The notes beneath the pieces are model-generated. The model saw nothing but the letters and a program-made list of their open reading frames with translations, did no database searches and was not told the DNA's origin. From Pseudonocardia hierapolitana (GTDB lineage: Bacteria > Actinomycetota > Actinomycetes > Mycobacteriales > Pseudonocardiaceae): a stretch of 64,000 nt of DNA. This document shows, piece by piece, positions 35,183-55,267 of this stretch. The DNA lies in assembly GCF_007994075.1 (NCBI RefSeq), contig NZ_VIWU01000001.1:992001-1056000 (forward strand). Reading direction: 5' to 3'. Numbering within the stretch: position 1 is the first letter of the stretch; every line of letters begins with the position of its first letter. The position numbers were made by a program, and so were the translations under genes.

Positions 35183-35240
35183 GTCGACGACACTCCCCCT
35201 TCCGGCGCGCCCTCGGCAGGTGCGCCCGGCCCTGAATCGG

Positions 35241-35387: not shown

Positions 35388-35401
35388 GGGACCTCCGCCC
35401 C
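35388..35401. promoter_or_regulatory. DosR-box-like element before CBS/Usp/SulP genes
   Basis: GGGACCTCCGCCCC matches 10 of 13 fixed positions of GGGACTTTNGGCCC and lies about 63 bases before the CBS-domain gene. Confidence 0.38.
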
Positions 35402-35463
35402 TGCCGACGTGACTCCGCCGACACGAGGCTGGAGGCCCGAGCGCACGCAAGGGAGCGACAGTC

Positions 35464-36779: not shown

Positions 36780-36905
36780 TCCGCGCGGCGCGCCGCTCTC
36801 ACGCCCGGAACGCGCGGACGCGGGGAGGGTGAGAGGCCCTCGGACCCCGCAGACCCTGCCTGAAGGACCGTGGACGCCGCGGCGACGCGGCCCGACGATG
36901 GAGCG

Positions 36906-38624: not shown

Positions 38625-38687
38625 CGGTTCCAGCGAGCTGCTCGGCCAAACCCCGTTCCCCGGGCCCGCCGCGGTGTCCCGGCCGAG

Positions 38688-39364: not shown

Positions 39365-40857
39365 TCAGAGGTCGTTCCCTGCGTAGGACAGGTTGAAGCT
39401 CTTGTTGACGAGGGGGAAGTCCGGAACGATCGTGTCGGCCAACGCGACCGGCAACGCCGGCCAGTTGAAGAAGCTGGGGTCCACGATCTTGAGACGACTG
39501 ATCGTGCCATCCTCGGCGAGTTCGACGCGGTGGACGATCGTCCCGCGCCACCCTTCGACGATTCCGACGCCCGGTCCGGCCTCCCCGCCGGATGCCGAGG
39601 GCTGGTTCGTCGGCATGCCACCGAGGTGCTCGACCAAGGCAGTGATGATGTCGACGGACGCGGCGGCTTCTTCGGCGCGGACACAGAAGCGGGCGAGAAC
39701 GTCCCCGCGGGTATGGCGATGTGTCGCGTGGGAGAAGGCCGCACTCAGGGTGGGATGGTCGTGGCGGGCATCGACCGGGAGACCACTGGCGCGGGCGACG
39801 TATCCGAGCGCCCCCAGATCGCTCGCCTGCTCGCGGGTGAGCACGGCGGTGCCGGTGAAGCGGTCGCGGACCACGCTGTGCTCCAGCGCGAGGGCGACGA
39901 CCTCGGCGACGTCGTCGGCGATCGCGGCGAGATCGGCGGGGTCGGGCAGCCGGAGCACGGTGGCCGTCCCGAGGCCGATCGCGCCGCGGAGCAGGCGGTG
40001 CCCGGCGACCTGTTCGTTCAGCCGGAGCAGGCGCTCGCGGATGCGCAACGCGTGCGCGTTGAGCACGCCGTGACCGACGTCGTTGCACAGCGCACCGATG
40101 TCGCCGACGTGGTTGTACAGCCGCTCGAGCTCGAGGACGATCATCCGCAGCCGGCTGTCGTCCTCGGTGACCGGGGTTCCCAGGGCGTCCTCGACGGCCT
40201 GGCAGAACGCCAGCGTGTGGCCCACTGTCGTGTCGCCGCTGACCCGTTCGGCCACGGGAAGGGCCTCGGCGGGCATCCTGCCCTGGACCAGCTTCTCGAG
40301 CCCGCGGTGGACGAACCAGAGCCGGGCCTTGAGCTTGAGGATGGTCTCCCCGACCACCGAGAACCGGAAGTGGCCAGGTCCGATCATGCCGGCGTGCACC
40401 GGGCCGACCGGGATCTCGTACACGCCGGCGCCCTCGACCTCGTGGAACGGGTACGGGCCGTCGACGTCGCCGAACTCCGGCGGGGGCCCGGCGTCGGAAA
40501 GCATCGGGTACCAGCCCTGCGGCCAGTGGAAGTGGCGCACCAGCCGCCGCGGCAGCGGATGCCCGACGGGCACGATCCCGAACAGGTCGCGCATCTCGCG
40601 CTCGAACCGTCCGCCGGGAACGACAGGTCGGCGAGGCTCGGCACGTGCGGCTTCGCGGGGTCGAGCGGGACGTGCAGCTCGGTGCGAGCGTCCGTGGCCG
40701 GGTCGGTGAACAGGTACACCGCGCGCAGCCCACCACCGATCGGTCGGTCGTCGTGGCCGGCGACGAGCGCGAGCCGGGCGCCGCCGCGCAGCAGCTCGGC
40801 CGCGCGGTCGGGCAGTTCGTCCGGTCGCAGCTTCGGGTTGGGGATCACGGCGGTCAT
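39365..40857 (-). pseudogene. hyfG: hydrogenase-4/FHL large-subunit-like protein (Rv0087/HycE type), Ni ligands absent, frameshifted
   Basis: A NuoC-like N-terminal domain (from ATG 40857) is fused to a NuoD/HycE-like C-terminal domain. The frame breaks at about 40611: LSFPA should run on to GRFEREMRDLFGIVPVGHP, and adding one G restores it. Where NiFe hydrogenases have two CxxC motifs, this protein has ERVSGDTTV and DPSFFNWPAL, so it cannot bind the Ni-Fe centre. It is the last gene of the ArsR-led operon and corresponds to M. tuberculosis Rv0087. It may link proton pumping to another electron carrier. The break could be a sequencing error. Confidence 0.85.
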
Positions 40858-42332
40858 GGCGCTCCGGAGAGGATCTCGGCGGCCGCGCCGAGCAGATCGG
40901 CCAGCGGCCCGGTGGACAGGCCCAACGCGACGCAGGCGAGCAGGCCGGTGACGAGGGCCACCGCGGTGGTGCGGGGCAGCGGCCGGGGCACCGGGGCCGC
41001 TCCAGGGGCCTCGCGGGGAGGACCGAGCAGCATCCGGCTGGTGTGGTTGACGAGGGCGGCGCCGATCACCACGACGAGCAGGAGCGCGACGGCCATCGCC
41101 CATCCGATACCGGATCCGAAGCCGGCGCGGGCGATGCCGAGCTCGCTGGCGAACAGGCTGAACGGCGGCAGCCCGACCAGCGCGAGCACGCCGAGCCCGA
41201 TGCTCCCGGCGAGGACGGGCTGACGCGCGGCCAATCCGCTGACCTCGGCGATGCGGCTGGTGCCGGTGGTCTGCAGCACCCGTCCCGCGCCGAGGAACAG
41301 CACGGTCTTGGCCAGGCCGTGCCCGAGCACGTGCAGCAGCACGGCGGCGGTGGCGAGCGGCCCGCCCACGGCCGCGCCGAGCGCGAGCAGGCCCATGTGC
41401 TCGATGCTGGAGTAGGCGAGCATCCGCTTGTAGTCGCGCTGCGCGATCAGCAGCGAGGCCGCGACCAGCAGCGATGCGAGCGCGGCCGCGAGCAGGAGCG
41501 CGCGGGCGAACCCCGGGCCGAGCACGCCGTCGGAGATGACTTTGATCCGGAGCACCGCGTAGAAGGCGACCGACAGCAGCACCCCGGACATCAGCGCTGA
41601 CACCGGGGCGGGTGCCTGGCTGTGCGCGTCGGGGAGCCACGCGTGCAGCGGCGCCAGCCCCGCCTTGGCCCCGAACCCGACGACCAGCAGCACGATAGCG
41701 ATGCGGGTGACGCCAGGGTCGAGGTGCGCAGATGCGCCCGCCAGCGCCGCCCAGTCCAGTCCCGCGCCGGTTCCGGAACGGGCGGAGGCGTGGTTGAGCA
41801 CGACGATCCCGAGCAGCGCGAGCGCGATCCCGGCCGAGCAGATGACCACGTACTTCCAGGCCGCCTCGACCGCTGCGCGGGTACGCCGCTGCCCGACCAG
41901 GAACGCGGTGACGATCGTCGTCGCCTCGACTGCGACCCACAGCACGCCGAGGTCTGCCGCCAGCACCGCGAGCGCCATCGCCGCGAGGAACGCCTGCACG
42001 AGCACCGCGTGCCAGGTCGCCGTGCGCGACCCGATCCGCCCGGCCGCGAGCTCCGCGGCCAGGTGCGCCGGCGTGGCGATCGCGACCAGCACGGCAACGG
42101 CGGTGATCACCACCAGCATGAACGCGCTCACCGCGTCGGCGCGTAGCAGCGCTCCGACGACGAGCGGGCCGTGCGTCACCACCTCCCCGGCCAGCACCGC
42201 AGCCGCGAGCAGCGAGAGCACGGCCGACACCGCGGCCACGCCCGCCGTAGACCGCCGCCACCCGGCCGCGGCGTACGCGAGGGCGCCGAGCGCGGGAACC
42301 GCGAGCGGCGCCACCACCAGCAGGATTTCCAT
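40854..42332 (-). CDS. hyfF: hydrogenase-4 subunit F-like / NuoN-type antiporter-like subunit
   Basis: The 492-residue protein has about 13-14 membrane segments of the proton-pumping antiporter family (proton_antipo_M). Typical phrases include VGFGAKAGLAPLHAWLPDAHS, KRMLAYSSIEHMGLL and HVLGHGLAKTVLFLGAG, holding the Lys and His residues used in proton transfer. It corresponds to Rv0086 (hycQ). It starts at ATG 42332, overlapping the upstream stop by one base, and overlaps hyfG by ATGA. It would form the pumping arm with HyfB-like and HyfE-like subunits. Confidence 0.92.
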   Translation of the reverse strand: MEILLVVAPLAVPALGALAYAAAGWRRSTAGVAAVSAVLSLLAAAVLAGEVVTHGPLVVGALLRADAVSAFMLVVITAVAVLVAIATPAHLAAELAAGRIGSRTATWHAVLVQAFLAAMALAVLAADLGVLWVAVEATTIVTAFLVGQRRTRAAVEAAWKYVVICSAGIALALLGIVVLNHASARSGTGAGLDWAALAGASAHLDPGVTRIAIVLLVVGFGAKAGLAPLHAWLPDAHSQAPAPVSALMSGVLLSVAFYAVLRIKVISDGVLGPGFARALLLAAALASLLVAASLLIAQRDYKRMLAYSSIEHMGLLALGAAVGGPLATAAVLLHVLGHGLAKTVLFLGAGRVLQTTGTSRIAEVSGLAARQPVLAGSIGLGVLALVGLPPFSLFASELGIARAGFGSGIGWAMAVALLLVVVIGAALVNHTSRMLLGPPREAPGAAPVPRPLPRTTAVALVTGLLACVALGLSTGPLADLLGAAAEILSGAP

Positions 42333-42985
42333 CAGTCGTGCAGCTCCCGCAGCTCGTCGAGGTCGGTGTCGCCGAACGCCTCCCGCATCCGCCCGGTGAG
42401 CACCTGCAGCACGAGCACGACGAGCAGGACGTCCAGCGCCACCCCGATCTCGACGACCAACCCGATGCCCGATGTGGTGAGGAACCCGACCGCCGTGATG
42501 CCGTTGTCCATCAGCAGGAACCCGACCAGCTGCGACACGGCGTGTCTCCTCGTCACCAGGACGAGGAACCCGATGAGGACCACTGCGATCGCAATCGGCA
42601 CCGCGCGCGACGCCGGTGTCGGCGCGAGGTCGACCAGCGGCCGCGACACGGCGAGCGCGAGCAGCGTGAGCGCCGCGGCCGCCAGGAGCGACGTGGCGAC
42701 GTTGATGACGGGGCGGGTCTCGCGTTGCACCGGCCCGGCCCCGGCGAGGGCGCGGCGCAGCAGCCATGGCAGCACGGCCCCGCGCAGCACCAGGAAGCCG
42801 ACCGCCACCATCGCCAGCTCGGCCGAGCTCTCGTCCCACGCCAACGCGGCGACCAAGGCCGAGAGCGCGACGCCCTGCAGCCCGAAGACACGCACGATGA
42901 CGGTCAGCTCACGGCGCCACAGCACGAGCACGGCCGTCAGCAGCAGGCCACCGGCGGCGAGGTTGAGCATCTCGATCCCGTGCAC
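42332..42985 (-). CDS. hyfE: hydrogenase-4 subunit E-like membrane protein
   Basis: The 217-residue protein has six or seven membrane helices, with LLMDNGITAVGFLTTSGIGL typical of the HyfE/HycP (Rv0085) family; its part resembles NuoK. It starts at GTG 42985, three bases after the HycD-like stop at 42989, and overlaps the next gene by one base. Its job in the complex would be as part of the membrane proton path. It has no cofactor motifs. Confidence 0.88.
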   Translation of the reverse strand: MHGIEMLNLAAGGLLLTAVLVLWRRELTVIVRVFGLQGVALSALVAALAWDESSAELAMVAVGFLVLRGAVLPWLLRRALAGAGPVQRETRPVINVATSLLAAAALTLLALAVSRPLVDLAPTPASRAVPIAIAVVLIGFLVLVTRRHAVSQLVGFLLMDNGITAVGFLTTSGIGLVVEIGVALDVLLVVLVLQVLTGRMREAFGDTDLDELRELHD

Positions 42986-42988
42986 TTC

Positions 42989-43936
42989 TCACCCCAGGAC
43001 GTACGCGGCAGTGACGGCGAGCACTGCGAGCAGGAACGACCCGGCCAACAGCTCGGGCACGCGGAACAGCCGCAGCTTGGCCAGGAACACCTCGGCGTAG
43101 GCGAGCGCCGCGCCGAGCAGGGCGACCTTCACGGCGAACGCTGCGAGGCCGACGGCGAGTGCCAGCAGGCCGGGCTCGGTGGCAACGCCCCACGGCAGGA
43201 ACAGGTTGGCCAGCAGCCCCAGGTACACCGCGAGCCGCATCGCCCCGCCGAGCTCGACGAGCGCGAGCCGCGGTCCGGCGTACTCCAGCACCATCGCCTC
43301 GTGCACCATGGTCAACTCCAGGTGCGTCGACGGGTTGTCCACTGGGAGCCGTCCGGTCTCGGCGACGATCACCATGGCGAGCGCGACCGCCGCGAGCAGG
43401 CTCGCCGGGGACAGCCCCCGCGCCGGGTCGTCCAGGGTGGACTCGACGATCGCAGGCAGGCTCGTCGATCCGACGCGCACCGACAGCGCGAAGATCGCCA
43501 CCAGCGCGGTGGGCTCGACCAGGGCGAGGATCGTCACCTCCCGGCTCGCGCCCATCCCGCCGAACGCCGTGCCGGTGTCCAGCCCGGCCAGCGCGATCGC
43601 CACGCTGCCGTGCGCGAGCAGCGCCACCACGACGAACAGGTCGGCGACGGCCGGCAGGGCCGACGCCGTGGTGACGAACGGGACGACGACCGCGACCACC
43701 AGCGCCATCGCCACCATCAGCACGGGGGCGACCCGGAACATCTCGCTCGTGCCACGCGGCGTGATCGTTTCCTTGCGCAGCTGCTTGCGCAGGTCCCGCC
43801 ACGGCTGCCCGATCCCGGCCCCCGCCCGGCCTTCCAGCCGGGCCCGCACCTGCCGCATCAGGCCGAGCAACAGCGGTGCCCCGCCGACGATCAGGACCGC
43901 CTGCAGCACGCCGCCCGCCACTCCGAGCGCGGTCAC
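42989..43936 (-). CDS. hycD: hydrogenase-4/FHL membrane subunit (NuoH-like, HycD)
   Basis: The 315-residue protein is a NuoH/HycD-type subunit with eight membrane segments. It has GIGQPWRDLRKQLRKE in the first loop, AETGRLPVDNPSTHLELTMVHEAM in the loop that faces the quinone or catalytic subunits, and a late LLAGSFLLAVLAV. It starts at GTG 43936 with GTGA overlap to the previous stop. It corresponds to Rv0084. It would anchor the soluble FeS and large subunits to the pump arm. Confidence 0.93.
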   Translation of the reverse strand: MTALGVAGGVLQAVLIVGGAPLLLGLMRQVRARLEGRAGAGIGQPWRDLRKQLRKETITPRGTSEMFRVAPVLMVAMALVVAVVVPFVTTASALPAVADLFVVVALLAHGSVAIALAGLDTGTAFGGMGASREVTILALVEPTALVAIFALSVRVGSTSLPAIVESTLDDPARGLSPASLLAAVALAMVIVAETGRLPVDNPSTHLELTMVHEAMVLEYAGPRLALVELGGAMRLAVYLGLLANLFLPWGVATEPGLLALAVGLAAFAVKVALLGAALAYAEVFLAKLRLFRVPELLAGSFLLAVLAVTAAYVLG

Positions 43937-45933
43937 CGGGTCACCGCCAGCAGAACGAGCAGGCCGCACAGCGTGGCGAAGCCGTACCCCAGGTAGAGGT
44001 GCACGCTGCCGGTCGCCAGCCGGCGCCCGACCCGACCCCACCCGGCGGCGGCGGACAGCACCGGCTCGTACAGGCGATGCTCGACCCGGTCCCGGAGGGT
44101 GCGCCGGTAGGCCACCGCGCGGACGAGGTAGCGGGACTCGTCGTGGTGGGTGACGTCGACGTCCTGGTCGGGCTCGAGCACGTTGTCGAACACGCGCTGC
44201 AGCGGCTCGGCGAACGAGGTCGCGGTGTACTCCATGCGCGCCGTCACGGGCCCGCCGCCGCAGTCCCACAGTCGCGCCTCCCGGGCGGCCCGTCCGGACA
44301 CGAGCGCAGCCACGAGCGCGGTCGCGGCTGCGAGCGCCGCCACCAGCAGCAGCGGCGACATCGCCCCCGAGACGCCTGCGAGCTCGATCGTGACCGTTCC
44401 GGTCACCGCAGGGGCCGAACCGGCCACCCCGCCCGCGACGCCCGCCACGGCCGGGAGGACGAGGGTGGGCACGACCGCGAGGACGATGCACGCGAGCCCG
44501 GCGAGGCCCATTCCCACCAGCATCGTCGGCGGGCTCTCGTGCGCCGCCGCGGAGGCGGCGCTGCGCGGCCGGGCCAGGAAGCCCACCCCGAACGCCTTGA
44601 CGAACGTCGCGACGGCCAATCCCGCGGTGAGCGCCACCGCGCCCACCGCCACCGGCAACACGAGCGACGACGCCACCCCCGACCCGCTGCCCGAGCCGTG
44701 GACCAGCGCCTGCAGCAGCACCCACTCGCTGACGAACGCCGTGCCCGGCGGCAGCGCGGACGCCGCCAGCGCCCCCAACCCGAACGCCGCCGTCGTCAGC
44801 GGCATCACCGGGCGCAGCCCGCCCAACGCATCGAGATCACGGGTGCCGGTGGCGTGCAGCACCGAGCCGGCGGCGAGGAACAGCAGCGTCTTGAACGCCG
44901 CATGCGCCATGACGTGCAGCAGCGCGGCGGTGAGCGCCAGGGCCGCGAGCACCTCGTCCCCGCCCGCTGCGAACATGCCGCTCGCGCCCACGCCGACCAT
45001 GACCAAGCCCATGTTCTCGGTGGTGGAGTAGCCCAGCAGTCGCTTCAGGTCGCTCCCCACCGCCGCCTGCAGGATCCCGTACACACCCGATGCGGCGCCG
45101 AGCACCAGCACGGTGAGCCACCACCACGACGCGCCGCCCCCGAGCAGGTCGAACCCCACCCGCACGATCCCGTACACGCCGAGGTTCACCATCGCCGCCG
45201 ACATCAGCGCCGAGACGTGGCTCGGCGCCTCCGGGTGCGCCCGCGGCAGCCAGCCGTGCAACGGCAGGATGCCCGCCTTGGAGCCGAACCCCACCAGGCA
45301 CAGCACGAACACCAGCCCGGCCGTCGCGGGTGAGCGGGTCGACTCCCGCACGGCCGCGAACGAGCCGTCGCCCGCCGCGCCGGCCAGCACCAGCAGCCCG
45401 ATCAGGATCGCGACGAACCCGAGGTGGGTCATCACCGCGTACCACCGGCCCGCCGACGCCACCTCGGCCCGCTGCCCGTGTTCGGCCAGCACCAGCAACA
45501 ACGACGCCAGCGCCATCAGCTCCCAGCACACCAGCAGCGTGCCGATGCTCCCCGCCGCCGGAACGAGCAACAGCGACACGACGAAGATCGGGAAGCTCGC
45601 CTGTACCGCCCGCCCGTCCAGCCCGCCGCGCGCGTACCCGATCCCGTACACGCCTGCTGCCACCGCAACGGCGCCCGCGACCGCGAGGAACACCCCACCG
45701 AGCGGGTCCACTGCGAGCTCGACGCCGGTGAGCGGCAACAGCCGGGGCAGCGCGACCGACCATGAGACCCCGCTCATCGCTGCGACCCCGGCGACGGACC
45801 CGAGCCCGCCGGCCGCGACGACGCAGGCGCCGACGACCGCGGGCCGGGCCGCGCGCGGCACGACGAGCGCGGCGACGCCTCCACCGAACCCGACGACGAG
45901 CGCTGCGACGAGAGCCACCTGCACGACGTTCAT
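43933..45933 (-). CDS. hyfB: hydrogenase-4 subunit B-like proton antiporter subunit
   Basis: The 666-residue protein is the largest subunit, corresponding to Rv0083. It is a NuoL/M-type antiporter with about 16 membrane helices, including LVGFGSKAGILPLHGWLPRAH, KRLLGYSTTENMGL and HVMAHAAFKTLLFLAAG. A C-terminal amphipathic part (WDCGGG) is followed by a last helix. ATG 45933 overlaps the HycG-like stop (ATGA). Key Lys and His for proton transfer are present in the phrases shown. Confidence 0.92.
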   Translation of the reverse strand: MNVVQVALVAALVVGFGGGVAALVVPRAARPAVVGACVVAAGGLGSVAGVAAMSGVSWSVALPRLLPLTGVELAVDPLGGVFLAVAGAVAVAAGVYGIGYARGGLDGRAVQASFPIFVVSLLLVPAAGSIGTLLVCWELMALASLLLVLAEHGQRAEVASAGRWYAVMTHLGFVAILIGLLVLAGAAGDGSFAAVRESTRSPATAGLVFVLCLVGFGSKAGILPLHGWLPRAHPEAPSHVSALMSAAMVNLGVYGIVRVGFDLLGGGASWWWLTVLVLGAASGVYGILQAAVGSDLKRLLGYSTTENMGLVMVGVGASGMFAAGGDEVLAALALTAALLHVMAHAAFKTLLFLAAGSVLHATGTRDLDALGGLRPVMPLTTAAFGLGALAASALPPGTAFVSEWVLLQALVHGSGSGSGVASSLVLPVAVGAVALTAGLAVATFVKAFGVGFLARPRSAASAAAHESPPTMLVGMGLAGLACIVLAVVPTLVLPAVAGVAGGVAGSAPAVTGTVTIELAGVSGAMSPLLLVAALAAATALVAALVSGRAAREARLWDCGGGPVTARMEYTATSFAEPLQRVFDNVLEPDQDVDVTHHDESRYLVRAVAYRRTLRDRVEHRLYEPVLSAAAGWGRVGRRLATGSVHLYLGYGFATLCGLLVLLAVTR

Positions 45934-46409
45934 CTGCCGGTCAGTTCCCTCAGCGCCGCGACGATCGCCTCCGGCCGAGGCGGGCACCCGGCGACCTCCG
46001 CGTCCACCGGGACGATCTCGGAAACCGGGCCGACCACCCCGTAGGCCCCCGCGAACACACCGCAGTTGCGGGCGCAGTCACCCACCGCAACCACGACCCG
46101 CGGCGTCGGCACGGCCTCGTACGTGCGGCGCAGCGGTTCGGCCATGTTGCGCGTCACGGGCCCGGTGACCAGCAGCGCGTCGGCGTGCCGCGGCGAGGCG
46201 ACGAGCCGTGCCCCGTAGCGCTCCGCGTCGTGGACCGGCCCGAACGCCGACCCGATCTCCACCTCGCAGCCGTTGCACGACCCGGCGTCCACGTGCCGGA
46301 TCTGCACCGAGCCGGACAGCGCGGCGGCAGCGGGTGACGCCGTCGGCGCGGGCGGCGCGGCCTCCGCGACCCGTCCGGTCCGGCGGATCTTCCGCCACAG
46401 ACCGATCAC
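45930..46409 (-). CDS. hyfI: NuoB/HycG-like iron-sulfur subunit
   Basis: The 159-residue protein has the NuoB-type [4Fe-4S] (N2) site: SCNGCEVEI gives two Cys, GDCARNC one or two more and AGCPPRPE the last. An unusual N-terminal stretch rich in Ala and Pro (RTGRVAEAAPPAPTASPAA) precedes it. It corresponds to Rv0082. It would pass electrons between the large subunit and its partner carrier. It overlaps the ArsR gene by ATGA and starts the structural part of the operon. Confidence 0.9.
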   Translation of the reverse strand: MIGLWRKIRRTGRVAEAAPPAPTASPAAAALSGSVQIRHVDAGSCNGCEVEIGSAFGPVHDAERYGARLVASPRHADALLVTGPVTRNMAEPLRRTYEAVPTPRVVVAVGDCARNCGVFAGAYGVVGPVSEIVPVDAEVAGCPPRPEAIVAALRELTGR

Positions 46410-46735
46410 GACGAGGTCCGCAGGTCGTCGAACAGCTCGAGCTGCCCGGACAGGACGCCGGTGAGGATCGACCGGGCCACCGCCAGCAGCTCCGAGACCT
46501 GCGGGCTCGTCAGCGCGTAGTGCACGGCCGCCCCTTCCCTGCGCGCGGTCACCAGGCCCGCCCGGCGCAGCACCGCGAGCTGCTGCGAGAGGTTCGCCGG
46601 CTCGATCTCGATCTCTCGGAGCAGCTCCGACACGGCGTGCTCCCGGATGCTGAGCAACTCCAGCACTCGGATCCTCACCGGGTGGCCGAGCGTCTTGAAG
46701 AACTCCGCCTTGAGCTGGTGGAGCGGCGTGCTCAC
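46406..46735 (-). CDS. ArsR/SmtB-family regulator, Rv0081-like
   Basis: The 109-residue protein has a winged helix domain. STPLHQLKAEFFKTLGHPVRIRVLELL and PANLSQQLAVLRRAGLVTARREG closely match M. tuberculosis Rv0081, a hub regulator of early hypoxia. It starts at GTG 46735; the longer ORF is rejected because that part belongs to a decayed DevS fragment. No Cys metal site is visible, so it may respond to redox or to a protein partner. An AGTTGC-N8-GCAACT operator lies 30 bases upstream. It likely controls its own operon. Confidence 0.9.
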   Translation of the reverse strand: MSTPLHQLKAEFFKTLGHPVRIRVLELLSIREHAVSELLREIEIEPANLSQQLAVLRRAGLVTARREGAAVHYALTSPQVSELLAVARSILTGVLSGQLELFDDLRTSS

Positions 46736-46765
46736 GACACCTCCCGGACCGTTGACAACGTTCGC

Positions 46766-46785
46766 AGTTGCAAAGATTAGCAACT
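46766..46785. promoter_or_regulatory. probable ArsR operator
   Basis: AGTTGC-N8-GCAACT is a perfect six-base inverted repeat with an AT-rich centre, 30 bases before the GTG of the Rv0081-like gene. Position and symmetry fit an ArsR-family site for autoregulation. Confidence 0.6.
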
Positions 46786-46818
46786 GGTGAAGAGTCCTGT
46801 GTCGTCGGGTTTCGAAAC

Positions 46819-47023: not shown

Positions 47024-48253
47024 TCACGACGCGCCTCTCCAGCGGGCCGCCTGCCTGCGCACGACCGTCGCGGTGAGCGCGCCCGCGGCTGCCGCGGTGA
47101 GCGCGAGCAGCACGTAGCCGATGGAGTAGTCCCCGAAGATCCCGTAGATCACGCCCATCACCAGCGGCGGGAAAAAGCCGCCCAGCCCGCCGGCGGCACC
47201 GACGAGGCCGGTCACCGCGCCGACCCGGCTCGGCTCGACCAGGCGCGCGACGAGCGCGAAGACCGCACCGGTGCCGACGCCGAGCGCCGCCGCGAGTCCG
47301 AGGAAGGCGACGGTACCGACCGGGGCGAGGGGCAGCTCGAACGCGGCGAGAGCGGCCAGCAAGGTCACCGCCCCGTAGGTGCAGGTGAGGACGGGAATCG
47401 GCGGGTAACGGTCGCAGAGCCAGCCTCCGACCGGCCGCATCGCGACCGCCAGAACGACGAAGCCGGCCGTCCGCAGTGCGGCGTCGCCGCGCTCCAGGCC
47501 GTACGCGGTGCTCAGGTAGGAGGGCAGGTAGACGCTGAAGGCGACGAACCCGCCGAACGCCACGGCGTAGAGGAAGGAGAGCTGCAGCGCCACCGGCGTC
47601 CGCAGCGCGGCGGCAAGGCGGGTGAGCATCGAGCCCGACGGGACCGGCCGGTCGGGGCGGTCGCGCAGTAGCAGGAAGGCGATCGCCGCGAAGACCACGA
47701 GCACGATCGCGACCAGGTCGAACGGGAAGTTCGGCCCGAACGCGGCCGCGAGCTGCACGGTGGAGAACGCCGAGATGGCGGTGCCACCCATCCCGGCGCC
47801 GAAGATGCCGAGGGCGAGCCCGCGGCGCTCGGGCGGGTACCAGGAGTTCACGAACGGGACGCCGATGGCGAACGTGGTGCCACCGAGGCCCAGGAAGAAC
47901 CCACCGACGAGGTAGCCGGCCAGCGAGTCGGCGAAGTGCCCGAGGTAGAGGACCGGCAGCACGGTCAGCAGGGCGACGGTCGGGAACATCCGGCGCGCCC
48001 CCAGCCGGTCGGTGAGTGCACCGACCGGGATCCGGCCGAGCGATCCGACGATGACCGGAACGGCCACCAACAGGGACTGCTGGAACGACGTGAGGGACAG
48101 CTCCTCGCGGAGTGTCGCCCCGAGCGGGGAGAGCAGCGCCCACGCCCAGAACGTCACCGCGAACCCGACCGTGGCGAGCACGAGCGCTCGGCGTGCCGAC
48201 GGTGGCTTCCCGTGCGAGTGGATCTGCATCGATTCCCGCGGGTCCTCGGCCAT
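47024..48253 (-). CDS. narK: NarK-type nitrate/nitrite transporter (MFS)
   Basis: The 409-residue protein has twelve membrane segments of the NNP/NarK group. It has SLGRIPVGALTDRLGARRMF in loop 2-3, GFFLGLGGTTFAIGVPFVNSWYPPERRGLALG in the first half (nitrate signature) and GAVTGLVGAAGGLGGFFPP in the second. The start is ATG 48253 with GGAGGGG upstream. It is divergent from narG, and their shared gap has a DosR-like box. It would bring in nitrate or expel nitrite for the reductase. Confidence 0.92.
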   Translation of the reverse strand: MAEDPRESMQIHSHGKPPSARRALVLATVGFAVTFWAWALLSPLGATLREELSLTSFQQSLLVAVPVIVGSLGRIPVGALTDRLGARRMFPTVALLTVLPVLYLGHFADSLAGYLVGGFFLGLGGTTFAIGVPFVNSWYPPERRGLALGIFGAGMGGTAISAFSTVQLAAAFGPNFPFDLVAIVLVVFAAIAFLLLRDRPDRPVPSGSMLTRLAAALRTPVALQLSFLYAVAFGGFVAFSVYLPSYLSTAYGLERGDAALRTAGFVVLAVAMRPVGGWLCDRYPPIPVLTCTYGAVTLLAALAAFELPLAPVGTVAFLGLAAALGVGTGAVFALVARLVEPSRVGAVTGLVGAAGGLGGFFPPLVMGVIYGIFGDYSIGYVLLALTAAAAGALTATVVRRQAARWRGAS

Positions 48254-48460: not shown

Positions 48461-51400
48461 ATGGGCGGGCGACACGCTGCGGCGGCAGGAACGACCGAGG
48501 GCAGGGCCGCCGGCCCGGGCACGGATGGGGCTGTGGCAGATGCGTTGCTGCGGACCGGCCGCTTCTTCACCCGCCGCGAGACGTCCGACGACCTACGCGC
48601 GGTGTACCGGGCGGGTGGCCGCGAGGGCGACGTCTTCTACCGCGACCGGTGGAGCCACGACAAGGTCGTGCGCTCCACGCACGGGGTGAACTGCACGGGT
48701 TCGTGCTCGTGGAAGGTCTACGTCAAGGACGGGATCATCACCTGGGAGAGCCAGCAGACCGACTACCCGTCGGTCGGCCCCGACTCCCCGGAGTACGAAC
48801 CGCGCGGCTGCCCGCGCGGCGCGGCCTTCTCCTGGTACACCTACTCCCCCACCCGCGTCCGCTACCCGTACGCCCGCGGGGCGCTCGTTGAGATGTACCG
48901 CGAGGCGAAGGACCGCCTGGGGGATCCGGTCCTCGCGTGGGCCGAGGTCACCGGCGATCCCGAGAAGCGTCGCCGCTATCAACGAGCTCGCGGCAAGGGC
49001 GGCCACGTGCGGGTGTCGTGGGACGAAGCGGTCGAGATGGTGGCCGCAGCGCACGTCCACACCGTCAAGGCCCACGGGCCGGACCGGATCGCCGGGTTCT
49101 CGCCCATCCCGGCGATGTCGATGGTCAGCCACGCCGCCGGGTCGCGGTTCATCGAGCTGGTCGGCGGCTGCATGACGTCGTTCTACGACTGGTACGCCGA
49201 CCTTCCCGTCGCCTCCCCGCAGGTGTTCGGTGACCAGACCGACGTGCCCGAGTCCGGCGACTGGTGGAACGCCTCCTACCTGCTCATGTGGGGGTCGAAC
49301 GTTCCGATCACCCGCACGCCGGACGCGCACTGGATGGCCGAGGCGCGGTACAAGGGCCAGAAGGTCGTCGTGGTCTCACCCGACTACGCCGACAACACGA
49401 AGTTCGCCGACACCTGGCTCCCCGCCCAGCCCGGCACCGACGGCGCACTGGCGATGGCCATGGGCCACGTCATGCTCAAGGAGTTCTTCGTCGACCGGCG
49501 CGTGCCGTTCTTCGTCGACTACGTGCAGCGCTACACCGACCTGCCGTTCCTGGTGGCACTGGAGGAACGCTCCACCGAGAACGGCGCTGTGTACGTCCCG
49601 GGGAAGTTCCTCACCGCCGCCGACATCGGCGACACGGGCGAAGGCGCGGAGTGGAAGACGGTGCTGTTCGACGGCCGGACCGGCGAGCCGGTGGTCCCGA
49701 ACGGCTCGCTGGGCTTCCGCTACACCGAGGCGGGTCGGGGTCGGTGGAACCTCGAGCTCGGGGACGTCGCTCCGCAGCTCACGCTGTTCGGTGGCGCGGC
49801 CGCGGAGGTGTTGCTCCCCCGCTTCGACTCCCTCGACGGCACCGGCGGCGTGCTACGTCGTGGTGTGCCCGTGCAGCGGGTCGGCGGGAAGCTCTGCACC
49901 ACGGTGTTCGACCTGATGCTCGCCCAGTACGGCGTGCGCCGCGACGGCCTGCCGGGCACCTGGCCGTCCGGTTACGACGACGCCGCGGAGCCGTACACCC
50001 CCGCATGGCAGGAGTCGATCACCTCGGTGCCGGCCCAGCAGGTCGTGCGCGTGGCGCGGGAAATGGCGCGCAACGCCGAGGAATCCGAGGGTCGCACCAT
50101 GATCATCATGGGGGCGGGCATCTGCCAGTGGTTCCACGGCGACGCCACCTACCGCGCGGTCCTCTCGCTGCTGCTGCTCACCGGATCGATGGGCCGCAAC
50201 GGTGGCGGCTGGGCCCACTACGTCGGGCAGGAGAAGTGCCGCCCGATCACCGGCTGGGCGACCATGGCGATGGCCACCGACTGGTCCCGCCCGCCGCGAC
50301 AGATGATCGGCACGGCCTACTGGTACACGCACACCGACCAGTGGCGCTACGACGGCTACCGCGCCGACGCCCTCACCTCGCCCTTGGCGCAGGGGCATCT
50401 GGCGGGCATGCACACGATCGACACGATCGCGCTGTCCGCCCGGCTGGGCTGGATGCCGTCCTACCCGCAGTTCGACCGCAACCCGCTGGACGTGGCGGAC
50501 GAGGCCGGGGACGGCGACGTCGTGGCCCACGTCGTCGACCAGCTGCGGTCGGGGAAGCTGAAATTCGCGATCGAGGACCCGGACGCGCCGGAGAACTGGC
50601 CGCGCTGCCTCACGCTGTGGCGGGCGAACCTGCTGGGCTCGTCGGCGAAGGGCGACGAGTACTTCCTCAAGCACCTGCTCGGCACCCACAACAACCTCCT
50701 CGCGGGCCAGACGCCCGAGGACCGCAGGCCCCGTGACGTGGCGTGGCGCGACGGCGAGCCACCGGAGGGCAAGCTCGACCTCCTGCTCGCGCTGGACTTC
50801 CGGATGACCAGCTCCACGCTGCTCGCCGACGTCGTGCTCCCGGCCGCCACCTGGTACGAGAAGCACGACCTCAACACCACCGACATGCACCCGTTCGTCC
50901 ACGCCTTCACGCCGGCGATCGACCCGCCGTTCGAGACGCGCACGGACTTCGCCGCCTTCCAGGCCATCGCCCGCCGGTTCTCCGAGCTCGCCGGCACGCA
51001 CCTGGGCGTGCGGCGCGACGTCGTCGCCGTGCCGCTGCAGCACGACACGCCCGGCGAGACCGCCCAGCCCGGCGGCCGGGTGCGCGACTGGCGGACCGGC
51101 GAGGTGGAGCCGGTCCCGGGCCGGACGATGCCGAACTTCGTCATCGTCGAGCGCGACTACGCCGCGATCGCCGACAAGATGGCGAGCATCGGGCCGCTGC
51201 TCGACCGGCTCGGGATGACGACCAAGGCGATCACCTACCAGCCCGACGAGGAACTCGCCCACCTCGCGGCCAAGAACGGGGTGATGCTCGGCGGCGCGGG
51301 CGACGGCCGCCCCGCGATCGACACCGACGCCAAGATGGCGGAGGCGATCCTCACCCTCTCCGCCACGACGAACGGGCGGCTCGCCGTCCAGGGGTTCCGG

Positions 51401-52192
51401 GAGCTGGAGCGGCGCACCGGCACCCGCCTCGTCGACCTCGCCGAGGGCAGCGAGGAGAAGCGCATCTCCTTCGCCGACACCCAGGCCCGCCCCGTGCCGG
51501 TGATCACCAGCCCGGAGTGGTCGGGCAGCGAGACCGGCGGTCGGCGCTACGCCCCGTTCACGGTGAACGTGGAGCGGAGCAAGCCGTGGCACACCCTGAC
51601 CGGCCGGATGCACTTCCTGCTCGACCACGACTGGATGCACGAGTTCGGCGAGACGCTGCCGGTCTACCGGGCCCCCCTGGACATGGAGCGCCTCTTCGGT
51701 GAGGGCCGGCCGGGGCAGCTCGGTGACGACGGCCGTTCGGTGACCGTTCGCTACCTCACGCCGCACTCGAAGTGGTCGATCCACTCGGAGTACCAGGACA
51801 ACCTGTTCATGCTCTCGCTGTCGCGCGGCGGCCCGGTGGTGTGGATGAGCGAGGCGGACGCGGCCTCGATCGGGGTGCGCGACAACGACTGGGTCGAGGG
51901 GGTCAACCGCAACGGCGTGCTCGTCGCTCGGGCGGTCGTCACGCACCGCCTGCCGCCGGGTGTCGTGTTCGTCTACCACGCACAGGAGCGGGTGGTGAAC
52001 GTGCCGAAGTCGGAGGCGACCGGTCGCCGGGGCGGGATCCACAACTCGCTGACGCGGATCATGGTCAAGCCCACGCACCTCGTGGGCGGGTACGCGCAGC
52101 TGTCGTTCGCGTTCAACTACCTCGGTCCCACGGGGAACCAGCGGGACGAGGTCACGGTCATCCGCCGCCGGTCGCAGGAGGTGACGTACTGA
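48461..52192 (+). CDS. narG: respiratory nitrate reductase, alpha (molybdenum) subunit
   Basis: The 1243-residue protein is a full-length NarG. The N-terminal [4Fe-4S] site is His74-x3-Cys78-x3-Cys82 with Cys117 (HGVNCTGSC, PRGCPRG). SFYDWYADLP carries the Asp that binds molybdenum, and later motifs for the bis-MGD cofactor are present. It reduces nitrate to nitrite on the inner side of the membrane. ATG 48461 has AGGGGAG upstream and gives the family's usual length. It is the first gene of narGHJI, whose genes overlap throughout. Confidence 0.96.
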   Translation: MGGRHAAAAGTTEGRAAGPGTDGAVADALLRTGRFFTRRETSDDLRAVYRAGGREGDVFYRDRWSHDKVVRSTHGVNCTGSCSWKVYVKDGIITWESQQTDYPSVGPDSPEYEPRGCPRGAAFSWYTYSPTRVRYPYARGALVEMYREAKDRLGDPVLAWAEVTGDPEKRRRYQRARGKGGHVRVSWDEAVEMVAAAHVHTVKAHGPDRIAGFSPIPAMSMVSHAAGSRFIELVGGCMTSFYDWYADLPVASPQVFGDQTDVPESGDWWNASYLLMWGSNVPITRTPDAHWMAEARYKGQKVVVVSPDYADNTKFADTWLPAQPGTDGALAMAMGHVMLKEFFVDRRVPFFVDYVQRYTDLPFLVALEERSTENGAVYVPGKFLTAADIGDTGEGAEWKTVLFDGRTGEPVVPNGSLGFRYTEAGRGRWNLELGDVAPQLTLFGGAAAEVLLPRFDSLDGTGGVLRRGVPVQRVGGKLCTTVFDLMLAQYGVRRDGLPGTWPSGYDDAAEPYTPAWQESITSVPAQQVVRVAREMARNAEESEGRTMIIMGAGICQWFHGDATYRAVLSLLLLTGSMGRNGGGWAHYVGQEKCRPITGWATMAMATDWSRPPRQMIGTAYWYTHTDQWRYDGYRADALTSPLAQGHLAGMHTIDTIALSARLGWMPSYPQFDRNPLDVADEAGDGDVVAHVVDQLRSGKLKFAIEDPDAPENWPRCLTLWRANLLGSSAKGDEYFLKHLLGTHNNLLAGQTPEDRRPRDVAWRDGEPPEGKLDLLLALDFRMTSSTLLADVVLPAATWYEKHDLNTTDMHPFVHAFTPAIDPPFETRTDFAAFQAIARRFSELAGTHLGVRRDVVAVPLQHDTPGETAQPGGRVRDWRTGEVEPVPGRTMPNFVIVERDYAAIADKMASIGPLLDRLGMTTKAITYQPDEELAHLAAKNGVMLGGAGDGRPAIDTDAKMAEAILTLSATTNGRLAVQGFRELERRTGTRLVDLAEGSEEKRISFADTQARPVPVITSPEWSGSETGGRRYAPFTVNVERSKPWHTLTGRMHFLLDHDWMHEFGETLPVYRAPLDMERLFGEGRPGQLGDDGRSVTVRYLTPHSKWSIHSEYQDNLFMLSLSRGGPVVWMSEADAASIGVRDNDWVEGVNRNGVLVARAVVTHRLPPGVVFVYHAQERVVNVPKSEATGRRGGIHNSLTRIMVKPTHLVGGYAQLSFAFNYLGPTGNQRDEVTVIRRRSQEVTY

Positions 52193-53922
52193 TGCGCGTG
52201 ATGGCCCAGATGGGCATGGTCATGAACCTCGACAAGTGCATCGGCTGCCACACCTGTTCGGTCACCTGCAAGCAGGCGTGGACCAACCGCAGCGGCGTCG
52301 AGTACGTCTGGTTCAACAACGTCGAGACCCGGCCCGGGCAGGGCTACCCGCGCCGGTACCAGGACCAGGAGACGTGGAAGGGCGGCTGGGTGCTGGGCCG
52401 CCGCGGACGGCTGCAGCTCAAGGCCGGTGGGAGGTTCCGGAAGCTCTTCTCGATCTTCGCCAACCCGGTCCTGCCCAACATCCGCGACTACTACGAGCCC
52501 TGGACCTACGACTACGAGAACCTCACCGACGCCCCGCTGGGCGACGACTTCCCCGTCGCCCAGCCGAAGTCGCTGATCTCCGGCGAGCCCATGGCCGTCG
52601 AGTGGAGTGCCAACTGGGACGACGACCTCGGCGGCGCCCCCGAGCACGGCCCGCGCGACCCGATCGTCGAGCGGATCCGGCGCGAGTCCGAGGACAAGGT
52701 CAAGTTCGACTACGAGCGGGCCTTCATGTTCTTCCTGCCGCGCATCTGCGAGCACTGCCTGAACCCGTCGTGCGTGGCCTCGTGCCCGTCCGGCGCGATG
52801 TACAAGCGGGCCGAGGACGGGATCGTCCTCGTCGACCAGGACCAGTGCCGCGGCTGGCGGATGTGCGTCACCGGCTGCCCTTACAAGAAGGTCTACTTCA
52901 ACCACCGCACCGGCAAGGCCGAGAAGTGCACGTTCTGCTACCCGCGGGTCGAGGTCGGACTGCCCACGGTGTGCAGCGAGACCTGCGTGGGGCGGCTGCG
53001 CTACATCGGCCTGTTCCTCTACGACGCCGACCGCGTCACCGCGGCGGCCTCCGTCGAGGACGAGCACGACCTGTACGAGGCGCAGCTCGACCTGCTGCTC
53101 GACCCGCACGACCCGCAGGTGATCGCCGCCGCGCGCCGCGACGGCATCGCCGAGGACTGGATCGCGGCCGCCCAGCGCTCGCCGGTCTTCAGGCTGGCGA
53201 AGGAGTACCGGGTGGCGCTCCCGCTGCACCCGGAGTTCCGGACCATGCCGATGGTCTGGTACATCCCGCCGCTCTCCCCCGTCGTCGACCGGCTCGCCGA
53301 GACGGGGCACGACGGCGAGGACGCCGGCAACCTCTTCGGCGCGATCGACGCGCTGCGCATCCCCGTCGAGTACCTCGCCGAGCTGTTCACCGCCGGTGAC
53401 GTCGAACCCGTCCGCACTGTGCTGCAGAGGCTGGCAGCGATGCGGTCGTACATGCGCGACGTCACCCTGGGCCGGCCGCGCAACGAGTCGATCGCGGAAT
53501 CCGTGGGGATGACCGGCGCCGAGATCCTGGAGATGTACCGGCTGCTCGCGATCGCGAAGTACGAGGAGCGCTACGTCATCCCCACCGCATACGAGGCGCA
53601 GGCCCACGACCTCGAGGAGATCGGCTGCAGCCTCGACGTCGACGGCGGGCCCGGGATGGTCGGCAGCGGCCCGTTCGGCGAGGCCTCCGGACGCCCGATG
53701 CCGGTGTCGGTGGAGACCTTCCACGCCCTGCGCGACCGCCAGACCAGCGACACCTTCGCCGACCCGAGCGAGCGCGGCGCCCGCATCAACCTCCTCAACT
53801 GGGACGGCAAGGGCCGCCCGCCCGGTCTCTTCCCGCCGCCGCGCGAGTCGCCACCGGGACCCGGGGACATCACCGGCCGCAGCCGACCCGATCCCGCCCC
53901 CACGCCGGGGGAGACGCGATGA
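52192..53922 (+). CDS. narH: respiratory nitrate reductase, beta (iron-sulfur) subunit
   Basis: The 576-residue protein binds one [3Fe-4S] and three [4Fe-4S] clusters. The motifs are CIGCHTCSVTC near residue 15, CEHCLNPSCVASC, CRGWRMCVTGCPYKK (Trp for Cys in the 3Fe cluster, as in other NarH) and CTFCYPR. It passes electrons from NarI to NarG. Its C-terminal 40 residues, rich in Pro and Gly, are an extension relative to E. coli NarH (512 aa). ATG 52192 overlaps the narG stop by one base. Confidence 0.96.
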   Translation: MRVMAQMGMVMNLDKCIGCHTCSVTCKQAWTNRSGVEYVWFNNVETRPGQGYPRRYQDQETWKGGWVLGRRGRLQLKAGGRFRKLFSIFANPVLPNIRDYYEPWTYDYENLTDAPLGDDFPVAQPKSLISGEPMAVEWSANWDDDLGGAPEHGPRDPIVERIRRESEDKVKFDYERAFMFFLPRICEHCLNPSCVASCPSGAMYKRAEDGIVLVDQDQCRGWRMCVTGCPYKKVYFNHRTGKAEKCTFCYPRVEVGLPTVCSETCVGRLRYIGLFLYDADRVTAAASVEDEHDLYEAQLDLLLDPHDPQVIAAARRDGIAEDWIAAAQRSPVFRLAKEYRVALPLHPEFRTMPMVWYIPPLSPVVDRLAETGHDGEDAGNLFGAIDALRIPVEYLAELFTAGDVEPVRTVLQRLAAMRSYMRDVTLGRPRNESIAESVGMTGAEILEMYRLLAIAKYEERYVIPTAYEAQAHDLEEIGCSLDVDGGPGMVGSGPFGEASGRPMPVSVETFHALRDRQTSDTFADPSERGARINLLNWDGKGRPPGLFPPPRESPPGPGDITGRSRPDPAPTPGETR

Positions 53923-54545
53923 CGACGCAGGCAGGCGGGCAAGCGGTCGTGCTCCAGGCGGCGTCGATCAGCCTGCAGTACCCCGACGACACCGTCCGGG
54001 AGACGTTCCCGCTCGTCCGGACCGCGGTGGACGCGCTCCCGGCCGGTCGGCCGCGTGAACGGTTGACGGCTTTTCTGGACCACGCGGAGACCACTCCGGC
54101 CGGTCCACTCGCCGAGCACTACGTCGCTGTGTTCGACCGGCGCCGCCGCTGCTGCCTCTACCTCACGTGGTGGAGCGACGGCGAGACCCGCCGCCGAGGC
54201 GGCGCGCTCGCCACGCTCAAGCAGCGCTATCGCGCCGCCGGGGTCGATTGGGACAGCACCGAGCTGCCCGACTTCCTCCCCGCGGTACTCGAGTACGCCG
54301 CCACCACCGACCTCGTCGACGGGCTCGCGCTGCTGCAGGAGCACCGGGCAGGTCTGGAACTGCTGCGGCTCGCCCTGCTCGAGGCCGGCACGCCGTACGT
54401 CGCGCCGGTCGAGGCGGTGTGCGCGCTGCTCCCCGGCCCCTCCCCCACCGACGTCGCGGCCGCGAAGGCGCTCGCGCGCAGCGGCCCACCGCGCGAGCAG
54501 GTCGGTCTGGAGCTCGCCCCGTTCCCGATGGGAGGACCCCGATGA
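53919..54545 (+). CDS. narJ: nitrate reductase molybdenum cofactor assembly chaperone
   Basis: The 208-residue protein is an all-helical NarJ (TorD family), with SLQYPDDTVRETFPLV, HYVAVFDRRRRCCLYLTWWSDGETR and PDFLPAVLEYAATTD. It helps insert the molybdenum cofactor into NarG and is not part of the final enzyme. It overlaps narH by ATGA and narI by ATGA. The length is usual for actinobacteria. Confidence 0.95.
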   Translation: MTTQAGGQAVVLQAASISLQYPDDTVRETFPLVRTAVDALPAGRPRERLTAFLDHAETTPAGPLAEHYVAVFDRRRRCCLYLTWWSDGETRRRGGALATLKQRYRAAGVDWDSTELPDFLPAVLEYAATTDLVDGLALLQEHRAGLELLRLALLEAGTPYVAPVEAVCALLPGPSPTDVAAAKALARSGPPREQVGLELAPFPMGGPR

Positions 54546-55267
54546 GTGCGCTGGACGTCCTGCTCTGGGGCGTACTGCCCTACGTGACGATCGTGATCCT
54601 GGTCCTCGGCACGATCTGGCGGTACCGCTACGACAAGTTCGGCTGGACGACCCGTTCGTCCGAGCTGTACGAGTCCCGGCTGCTGCGCATCGGCAGCCCG
54701 CTGTTCCACTTCGGCATCCTCGTGGTGATCATCGGCCACGTCATCGGCCTCCTCATCCCGAAGACCTGGACCGACGCGGCGGGTCTGTCCCAGGGGGCGT
54801 ACCACGTGCAGGCGCTACTGCTCGGCGGGATCGCCGGCTTCTGCACCCTCGTCGGGGTCGGGATCCTCGTCTACCGGCGCCGCACGACCGGGCCGGTCTT
54901 CATGGCCACCACGAAGAACGACAAGGCCATGTACGTGGTGCTGGTCGCCGCGATCGTCGTCGGGCTGGCAACCACCCTCCTCGGTGCCGCCGGCGGCGAG
55001 GAACACAACTACCGGCTATCGGTCGCCCCCTGGTTCCGGTCCCTGTTCGTGCTGCAGCCCGACATCGAAGCGATGGCCCACTCCGGCCTGGCGTTCCAGC
55101 TGCACACGCTCATCGGCATGCTGCTGTTCGCGATCTGGCCGTTCACCCGGCTGGTCCACGCCTTCACCGCGCCGATCCAGTACCTCTTCCGCCCCTACAT
55201 CGTCTACCGCTCCCGCGGTGGCGGGCCGGCGGCCCGACCACCGCGCCGCGGGTGGGAGCGGGTCTGA
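54542..55267 (+). CDS. narI: respiratory nitrate reductase, gamma (heme b) subunit
   Basis: The 241-residue protein has five membrane segments. Two pairs of His (FHFGILVVIIGHVIG and the LHTLIGMLLF...RLVH part) hold the two b hemes and oxidise menaquinol, passing electrons to NarH. The end is Arg/Gly-rich. ATG 54542 overlaps narJ. The gene completes narGHJI; no narX-type fusion is present. Confidence 0.95.
   Translation: MSALDVLLWGVLPYVTIVILVLGTIWRYRYDKFGWTTRSSELYESRLLRIGSPLFHFGILVVIIGHVIGLLIPKTWTDAAGLSQGAYHVQALLLGGIAGFCTLVGVGILVYRRRTTGPVFMATTKNDKAMYVVLVAAIVVGLATTLLGAAGGEEHNYRLSVAPWFRSLFVLQPDIEAMAHSGLAFQLHTLIGMLLFAIWPFTRLVHAFTAPIQYLFRPYIVYRSRGGGPAARPPRRGWERV

What the first reader, a model, noticed from the sequence alone, without database searches (positions are those of the whole stretch)
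39365..46735. ArsR-led, nickel-free hydrogenase-like proton-pump operon (Rv0081-Rv0087 type)
Gene order ArsR, HycG, HyfB, HycD, HyfE, HyfF, HycE matches M. tuberculosis Rv0081-Rv0087, with overlaps or very short gaps throughout. The large subunit replaces both CxxC nickel motifs (ERVSGDTTV, DPSFFNWPAL), and no formate dehydrogenase, ferredoxin-like electron-input subunit or maturation genes are nearby. The complex therefore keeps a full antiporter arm but has an unknown electron donor and acceptor. It may be a little-studied redox-driven (or reverse) proton pump used during hypoxia, next to nitrate respiration.
Basis: partly seen in the sequence, partly recalled or inferred. Interest (0 to 1): 0.78.

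Follow-up and report, generated by a model that had tools for sequence, protein, structure and literature searches.

The report
Nickel-free hydrogenase-like proton pump operon
A soil bacterium carries the genes for a membrane machine that looks like a hydrogen-making enzyme but has lost its nickel site; the same stripped-down set of genes recurs in many other bacteria with a new, strictly conserved pocket, and in this strain one of its genes appears broken.

Summary
The operon is real: ArsR-hycG-hyfB-hycD-hyfE-hyfF-hycE on the minus strand of a Pseudonocardia genome (window 46735-39365). It is not a [NiFe] hydrogenase or formate hydrogenlyase: the four nickel cysteines are Ser/Thr/Ser/Gly in 80 of 80 related loci (one has Ala for Thr), and this genome has no hypD and no hypE above cut-off. 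What remains is strongly conserved in relatives: a four-cysteine cluster in HycG, an invariant cavity, the proton path and the pump residues of both antiporter subunits. Complex I's quinone Tyr/His pair is absent, and no electron-input subunit is encoded with it. The same minimal gene set occurs in many actinobacterial genera and in proteobacteria. A palindromic operator, unique in this genome within one mismatch, lies in front. Best reading: an Ehr-type redox-driven proton pump that takes electrons straight onto HycG and reduces an unknown substrate. Ni-free Ehr complexes and the Rv0081-Rv0087 operon are in print, so I file this as a variant of a known kind.

The parts
46765..46786 (.). Palindromic operator CAGTTGCTAATCTTTGCAACTG (read on the minus strand) in front of arsR; its core 46768-46783 is the only place in the 8.86-Mb genome within 1 mismatch of TTGCTAANNTTNGCAA
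46406..46735 (-). ArsR-family regulator (GTG start), no cysteine; probably the operon's own repressor
45930..46409 (-). HycG/NuoB-like small subunit; C45, C48, C112, C142 correspond to the ligands of one [4Fe-4S] cluster, plus C116
43933..45933 (-). HyfB antiporter-like subunit, Glu138/Lys219/Lys348 kept
42989..43936 (-). HycD/NuoH-like membrane anchor, acidic E-channel-region residues kept
42332..42985 (-). HyfE membrane subunit
   Evidence: below the model's cut-off
40854..42332 (-). HyfF antiporter-like subunit, Glu137/Lys224/Lys343 kept
40600..40857 (-). hycE, N-terminal part of the NuoC-like domain, in one frame (ATG at 40857 overlaps the hyfF stop); lower end approximate
39365..40594 (-). 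hycE, remainder in another frame (409 aa): SGDT in place of CGIC, C-terminus NKSFNLSYAGNDL in place of the DPCYSC region; the frame break lies near 40600
47024..48253 (-). Neighbour: NarK-type nitrate/nitrite transporter (below the model's cut-off)
48533..55267 (+). Neighbour: narG, narH, narJ, narI

Best explanation
This is a six-subunit, nickel-free relative of group 4 hydrogenases (an 'Ehr' complex) with its own ArsR repressor. A soluble low-potential donor docks directly on HycG, where HycF/NuoI-type subunits sit in relatives, and reduces its single [4Fe-4S] cluster. The electrons pass to an unknown oxidised substrate bound in the HycE cavity where nickel used to be (invariant SGD-T and N-x-SY-x-GND-L). 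The substrate is protonated through the retained Arg/His/Glu/Arg path, and the reaction drives the E-channel and two antiporter subunits to pump protons, or runs backwards. Shown by sequence: loss of the nickel and quinone ligands, retention of cluster, proton-path and pump residues, conserved gene set and operator. Inferred: donor, substrate, direction and pumping. In this strain the complex is probably not made intact, unless the frame break is an assembly error.
For: Nickel Cys 241/244/531/534 (HycE numbering) are S 80/80, T 79/80, S 80/80, G 80/80. No hypD in this 99.88%-complete single-contig genome, and only sub-cut-off hypE matches, while three genomes with a canonical formate hydrogenlyase large subunit have both. 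Four HycG cluster cysteines 71/71 called HycG. R478, H284, E437, R395 kept 80/80. HyfB Glu138/Lys219/Lys348 71/71, HyfF Glu137/Lys224/Lys343 74/74; HycD E133, E141, E193, D200, E207, E213, E218 in at least 75/76. C-terminal 14 residues: mean column entropy 0.14 bits against 0.90 for the 409-aa part. ArsR plus the six genes uninterrupted in 57 of 80 loci and the six without a called ArsR directly in front in 9 more; the other 14 are cut by a contig end, miss a called gene or have an extra call in between. The six genes recur, in another order, on plasmids of Rhizobium, Paraburkholderia and Methylocalor. Operator TTGC-N8-GCAA in 45 of 73 upstream regions.
Against: No donor, acceptor or activity is known. 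No electron-transfer gene was seen to be conserved beside the operon, though my gene caller can miss ferredoxin-sized genes. The frame break in hycE argues that the complex is dispensable, or already lost, in this strain. The beta1-beta2 loop glutamate, the proton donor in hydrogenases, is Gly in 20 of 80 relatives and in the window. 13 of 27 genomes given that carry the Ni-free form do have hypD, though other hydrogenases could explain that. No structure could be predicted.
Confidence: 0.5

Rival explanations
1. A menaquinone reductase: a soluble donor reduces HycG's cluster, which reduces menaquinone in the HycE cavity, as in complex I but with different head-group contacts.
For: Same family as NuoD, with complex I chains among the best solved matches; canopy Arg and the proton path kept; actinobacteria use menaquinone (recalled).
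Against: The position of Nqo4 His38 is Ile 80/80 and that of Tyr87 is Gly 80/80. Complex I's adjacent cysteine pair is replaced by the hydrogenase-type CxxC spacing. Canopy Asp529, called strictly conserved in PMC9474812, is Asn 80/80.
Confidence: 0.2
2. A sulfur (polysulfide or persulfide) reductase like archaeal MBS, in which the cluster itself is the catalyst.
For: MBS is a Ni-lacking relative that also lacks the His38/Tyr87 equivalents (PMC7684303, passages).
Against: MBS catalysis rests on a proximal cluster held by three cysteines; here all four ligand cysteines with CxxC spacing are kept 71/71. MbsL keeps two of the four nickel cysteines; here none. The window's HycE part scores 163 bits against HycE and 45 against the MBS chain.
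Confidence: 0.08
3. A redox-gated or redox-independent ion antiporter or membrane-potential regulator: the membrane arm does the work and the HycE-HycG pair is a sensor or a remnant.
For: No electron-input subunit; full antiporter arm; neighbours in some loci look like CBS-domain and universal-stress proteins (labels by eye).
Against: Invariant cluster cysteines and a cavity that is among the most conserved parts of HycE.
Confidence: 0.15
4. A true [NiFe] hydrogenase / formate hydrogenlyase, as annotated for the M. tuberculosis operon.
For: Gene names; HycE is the best solved match.
Against: No nickel ligands, no C-terminal extension past the DPCYSC position, no hypD in the genome, no formate dehydrogenase, HycB or HycF gene in or directly beside the operon. 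A formate dehydrogenase elsewhere in the genome was not searched for.
Confidence: 0.02
5. In this particular strain the operon is decaying, and the frame break in hycE is a real inactivating change.
For: Frames part near 40,600; 79 of 80 loci from named genomes give an ORF of at least 470 aa there; no second copy in this genome.
Against: The other six genes are open; an assembly error in G+C-rich DNA gives the same picture.
Confidence: 0.45

Closest known systems
M. tuberculosis Rv0081-Rv0087 ('predicted formate hydrogenlyase', hycDPQE)
   Same: Regulator followed by the same kinds of subunit in the same order, as listed in PMC6901956 (passages); [quoted passage not shown]
   Different: There rv0079-rv0081 belong to the DosR regulon; no DosR-type box was found here. 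Rv0087 itself was not compared; two Mycobacterium MAG loci (L118, L122) and 'Ca. M. methanotrophicum' (L125) are among the 80 with the Ni-free pattern.
Ehr (energy-converting hydrogenase-related) complexes
   Same: Group 4 relatives that lack the residues coordinating Ni and Fe and carry antiporter-like subunits (PMC6349859, passages)
   Different: Six subunits with no ferredoxin-like or NuoE/F-like partner; in 57 of 80 loci an ArsR gene is called directly in front (one on the other strand)
E. coli formate hydrogenlyase (Hyc) and hydrogenase 4 (Hyf)
   Same: HyfB, HycD, HyfE, HyfF, HycE and HycG homologues; HycE is the best solved match to the large subunit
   Different: No nickel cysteines, no C-terminal extension, no HycB/F/H/I or formate dehydrogenase with the operon; HyfB keeps a lysine that is Leu in E. 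coli HycC
Pyrococcus MBS sulfane reductase
   Same: Nickel lost; quinone residues absent
   Different: All four nickel cysteines lost instead of two; four-cysteine proximal cluster; no MbsN-type subunit encoded with it
Respiratory complex I (NuoB/C/D/H/L/M/N)
   Same: Core subunit families; canopy Arg and proton path
   Different: No NADH module or NuoI encoded with it; Tyr87/His38 positions are Gly/Ile; canopy Asp is Asn

Membership tests
Group 4 [NiFe] hydrogenase | Four cysteines (two CxxC) binding the Ni-Fe site | tested here: not met
   S/T/S/G in the window and in 80 of 80 loci, one Ala at the second position
Group 4 [NiFe] hydrogenase | Hyp maturation genes in the genome | tested here: not met
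   hypD absent, hypE only far below cut-off in G000; other hyp genes not searched
Formate hydrogenlyase | HycB/HycF electron-transfer subunits and formate dehydrogenase with the operon | tested here: not met
   Absent from the operon and its annotated neighbours; control L163 has HycB, F, H and I
Ehr (Ni-free hydrogenase-related) complexes | Group 4 homology without Ni/Fe-coordinating residues | tested here: met
Ehr (Ni-free hydrogenase-related) complexes | Antiporter-like membrane subunits | tested here: met
   HyfB and HyfF, PF00361, with pump residues
Ehr (Ni-free hydrogenase-related) complexes | Redox reaction coupled to ion translocation | not testable with these tools
   needs biochemistry
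Rv0081-Rv0087 operon type | ArsR then HycG, HyfB, HycD, HyfE, HyfF, HycE in this order | tested here: met
   M. tuberculosis order from a table in PMC6901956
Complex I | Quinone residues Tyr87/His38 of the 49-kDa subunit | tested here: not met
   Gly and Ile in 80 of 80
MBS sulfane reductase | Proximal cluster with three cysteine ligands | tested here: not met
   Four ligand cysteines 71 of 71 with CxxC spacing

The most novel reading that the evidence does not exclude
A widespread six-subunit complex, found in actinobacteria and proteobacteria, is a minimal redox pump of its own: one iron-sulfur cluster fed directly by a soluble donor, and a new nickel-free and not complex-I-like active site with an invariant signature, working on a substrate that no known complex of this superfamily uses. 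Its close sister group keeps the nickel cysteines yet lives mostly in genomes in which no HypD or HypE was found, so the site may hold another metal there.
Probability: 0.35. Interest if true: 0.8.

Novelty: new variant of a known kind. Interest (0 to 1): 0.55.

Why it matters
The M. tuberculosis operon of this type is described as a predicted formate hydrogenlyase or putative [NiFe] hydrogenase; the sequences here argue that this type makes no hydrogen at all. A functioning complex with one cluster and two antiporter subunits would be close to the simplest redox-driven pump, and its conserved cavity points to residues that can be tested to find the missing substrate. Cysteine-bearing sisters in genomes without HypD and HypE bear on how the nickel site was lost on the way to complex I.

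Tried and rejected
Conserved electron-transfer neighbour: clustering all called genes of 81 loci (window included) showed none among the 45 families listed, judged by eye except for five put to Pfam; ferredoxin-sized genes can be missed by my caller. What recurs downstream in the same direction is PEP carboxykinase (13 of 81), a malic-enzyme-like protein (23 of 81) and an 80-aa protein (10 of 81). The malic-enzyme-like protein looked like a possible donor enzyme, but the glycine-rich nucleotide motif expected there (recalled) is not visible (A1), so I did not build on it. MBS-type chemistry: disfavoured by the four-cysteine cluster. Programmed frameshift: not supported, since 79 of 80 loci give a full-length ORF. 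Structure prediction: never accepted, so no fold search. Literature: ten searches; 'Rv0087' + 'formate hydrogenlyase' gave 4 papers, 'Rv0082' + 'hydrogenase' + 'tuberculosis' gave 3, a six-term search on mycobacterial Hyc and cysteines gave 0, and one on HyfB/HyfE with ArsR or stress proteins gave 0. Of papers I saw only listings and passages. Marreiros 2013 (not tried) and He 2011 (not held) may cover part of this. The claim that the residue pattern is unreported rests only on these searches of open papers.
Full report
What is there. The window lies in an 8.86-Mb single-contig genome; the closest named homologues are Pseudonocardia. On the minus strand, from 46735 down to 39365, lie arsR, hycG, hyfB, hycD, hyfE, hyfF and hycE, overlapping by 4 bases at four junctions and by 1 base at hyfE/hyfF, with one 3-base gap between hycD and hyfE. 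Pfam and NCBIfam agree on the kinds: ArsR HTH, Oxidored_q6, two Proton_antipo_M subunits, NADHdh, a hydrogenase-4 membrane subunit (below cut-off), and Complex1_49kDa/NiFeSe_Hases. The order is that listed for rv0081-rv0087 in PMC6901956 (passages read).

hycE is broken here. The N-terminal part starts at ATG 40857 and follows the expected protein down to about 40,600; the rest (39365-40594, 409 aa) is in another frame. The 119 other relatives listed (of 7992 found) are single proteins of 451-562 aa. Of 80 loci from named genomes, 79 give an ORF of at least 470 aa and one (L101) gives 436 aa. G030 in the same genus also shows a split match. There is no second copy in this genome; its only other hit is complex I NuoD. 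Whether the break is real or an assembly error cannot be told without reads. Intact copies exist in relatives.

No nickel site. In the alignment with E. coli HycE, the four cysteines 241, 244, 531 and 534 are Ser (80/80), Thr (79/80, one Ala), Ser (80/80) and Gly (80/80) in the 80 actinobacterial loci, and S, T, S, G in the window. The protein ends there (NDL), without the C-terminal extension that the E. coli protein carries. HypD is absent from this genome and HypE matches are far below cut-off; the three control genomes with a canonical formate hydrogenlyase large subunit have both. Of 27 genomes given that carry the Ni-free form (18 of the 19 Pseudonocardia positives, G030 left out, and 9 from the phylum scan), 14 lack HypD and 13 have it. 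Five of five genomes of a 41-45% identical Ni-free clade and four of five of another Ni-free type have HypD too, so HypD presence alone says little.

No complex I quinone site. The positions of Nqo4 His38 and Tyr87 are Ile 80/80 and Gly 80/80. Canopy Asp529 of HycE, described as strictly conserved (PMC9474812, passages), is Asn 80/80.

What is kept. HycG (71 called): the four cluster cysteines C45, C48, C112 and C142 in 71, and a fifth, C116, in 70; it is Gly in the five reference sequences used, but a cysteine four residues after the third ligand is also seen in two of the sister-group loci (L153, L156) and in L164. HycE: R478, H284, E437 and R395, 80 of 80; beta1-beta2 loop Glu193 in 60, Gly in 20 and in the window. 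HyfB Glu138, Lys219, Lys348 (71/71) and HyfF Glu137, Lys224, Lys343 (74/74); Lys219 is Leu in E. coli HycC. HycD E133, E141, E193, D200, E207, E213 and E218 in at least 75 of 76. The C-terminal 14 residues have mean entropy 0.14 bits against 0.90 for the 409-aa part; 156 of 409 positions are invariant in at least 79 of 80; the ending KSFNLSYAGNDL is identical in 73 of 80. The old nickel pocket is thus under strong constraint, not decaying, in the family.

Spread and kinship. 19 of 60 Pseudonocardia genomes have an orthologue. In 396 actinobacterial genomes, 10 have one at 54% identity or more, this genome included. Of 80 loci from many genera, 57 have ArsR and the six genes uninterrupted (in L119 the ArsR is on the other strand), 9 have the six genes without a called ArsR directly in front, and 14 are cut by contig ends, miss a called gene or have an extra call in between. 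Plasmid relatives at about 40% identity in Paraburkholderia, two Rhizobium and Methylocalor have hyfB-hycD-hyfE-hyfF-hycE-nuoB without input subunits, the two Rhizobium with a helix-turn-helix regulator in front. A Rhodococcus plasmid copy (58%) has no annotated ArsR, and an Alicyclobacillus relative (31%) stands without the other subunits. In a quick tree of 56 rows the Ni-free rows of this type form one branch (support 88), next to a separate group that keeps nickel cysteines (100); together with two other Ni-free types they lie apart from formate hydrogenlyases (98). The program warns of long branches and odd composition.

A curious sister group. L049, L052, L055, L058, L060 and L061 keep all four cysteines (L050 keeps three), lack the C-terminal extension, and the six of them fetched in full (L050 was not) sit in the same six-gene sets with an ArsR-like gene beside them. 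Of the nine genomes of this group, seven lack HypD and the same seven lack HypE above cut-off; G156 and G167 have both. G134 is a single contig. The N-terminal cysteines of G332 and both sites of G156 were not read.

Regulation and neighbours. A palindrome TTGC-N8-GCAA lies in front of the operon in 45 of 73 usable upstream regions, window included (one more has a 5-base spacer). Within one mismatch of TTGCTAANNTTNGCAA, this genome has a single place, window 46768-46783. Six of seven Pseudonocardia genomes searched have such a site; G009, which carries the operon, has none, and the reversed control pattern gave 1-2 chance hits in four of the seven. In the 80 loci, 57 such sites lie at the operon front and 14 elsewhere, six of these beside CBS-like genes; at least three of the 14 (L070, L089, L101) are probably operon-front sites where a gene was not called or another call lies between. 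The ArsR has no cysteine; Rv0081 likewise lacks a defined metal site and represses itself through an inverted repeat (PMC6177252, passages). No DosR-type box was found. Downstream, in the same direction, 13 of 81 loci have PEP carboxykinase and 23 of 81 a malic-enzyme-like protein; the window has neither. narG is present over cut-off in 13 of 19 operon-bearing and 13 of 41 other Pseudonocardia genomes (p 0.012, uncorrected for kinship; 14 of 19 against 14 of 41 if two fragmented ones are added, p 0.006); the two lie close on one contig only here and in G048, though many of these genomes are drafts.

How it most likely works. One cluster, no input subunit, a conserved cavity with a proton path, and two complete antiporter subunits point to a redox-driven pump in which a soluble donor meets HycG directly. 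Donor, acceptor and direction are inferred, not shown. An MBS-like mechanism is disfavoured (PMC7684303, passages); a menaquinone reductase with unusual contacts remains open.

Known or new. Ni-free Ehr complexes are described (PMC6349859, passages), and the M. tuberculosis operon is described as a predicted formate hydrogenlyase. What this adds is the residue-level case against hydrogenase and against a complex-I-type quinone site, the minimal gene set across phyla, the operator and the cysteine-bearing sisters without HypD and HypE.

Noticed in passing
window near 40600: hycE changes reading frame inside its NuoC-like domain; assembly error or real loss cannot be told.
   Followed up: partly
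L151-L156; genomes G342, G327, G134, G167, G235, G261: Sister six-gene sets keep the nickel cysteines, yet five of these six genomes lack hypD and hypE above cut-off; the site may hold another metal or none.
   Followed up: partly
L066:3768-4562 and 22 other loci: A malic-enzyme-like protein of about 260 aa with no Pfam hit lies downstream of hycE in the same direction, in some loci followed by PEP carboxykinase.
   Followed up: partly
L160, L161 (same genes as L048, L051): Another Ni-free HycE type (SGTD, tail ending CDG) in operons whose HycG is closer to E. coli HycG; L161 also has a HycF-like gene.
   Followed up: no
window 34292-39116 and 55766-56380: A SulP transporter and genes that by eye look like universal-stress and CBS-domain proteins flank the operon and nar cluster.
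   Followed up: no
L070:12754, L073:13295, L082:15235, L087:15004, L089:13790: Further copies of the ArsR-type operator between a second ArsR gene and a CBS-like gene (in L070 in front of the second ArsR only), a possible small regulon.
   Followed up: partly
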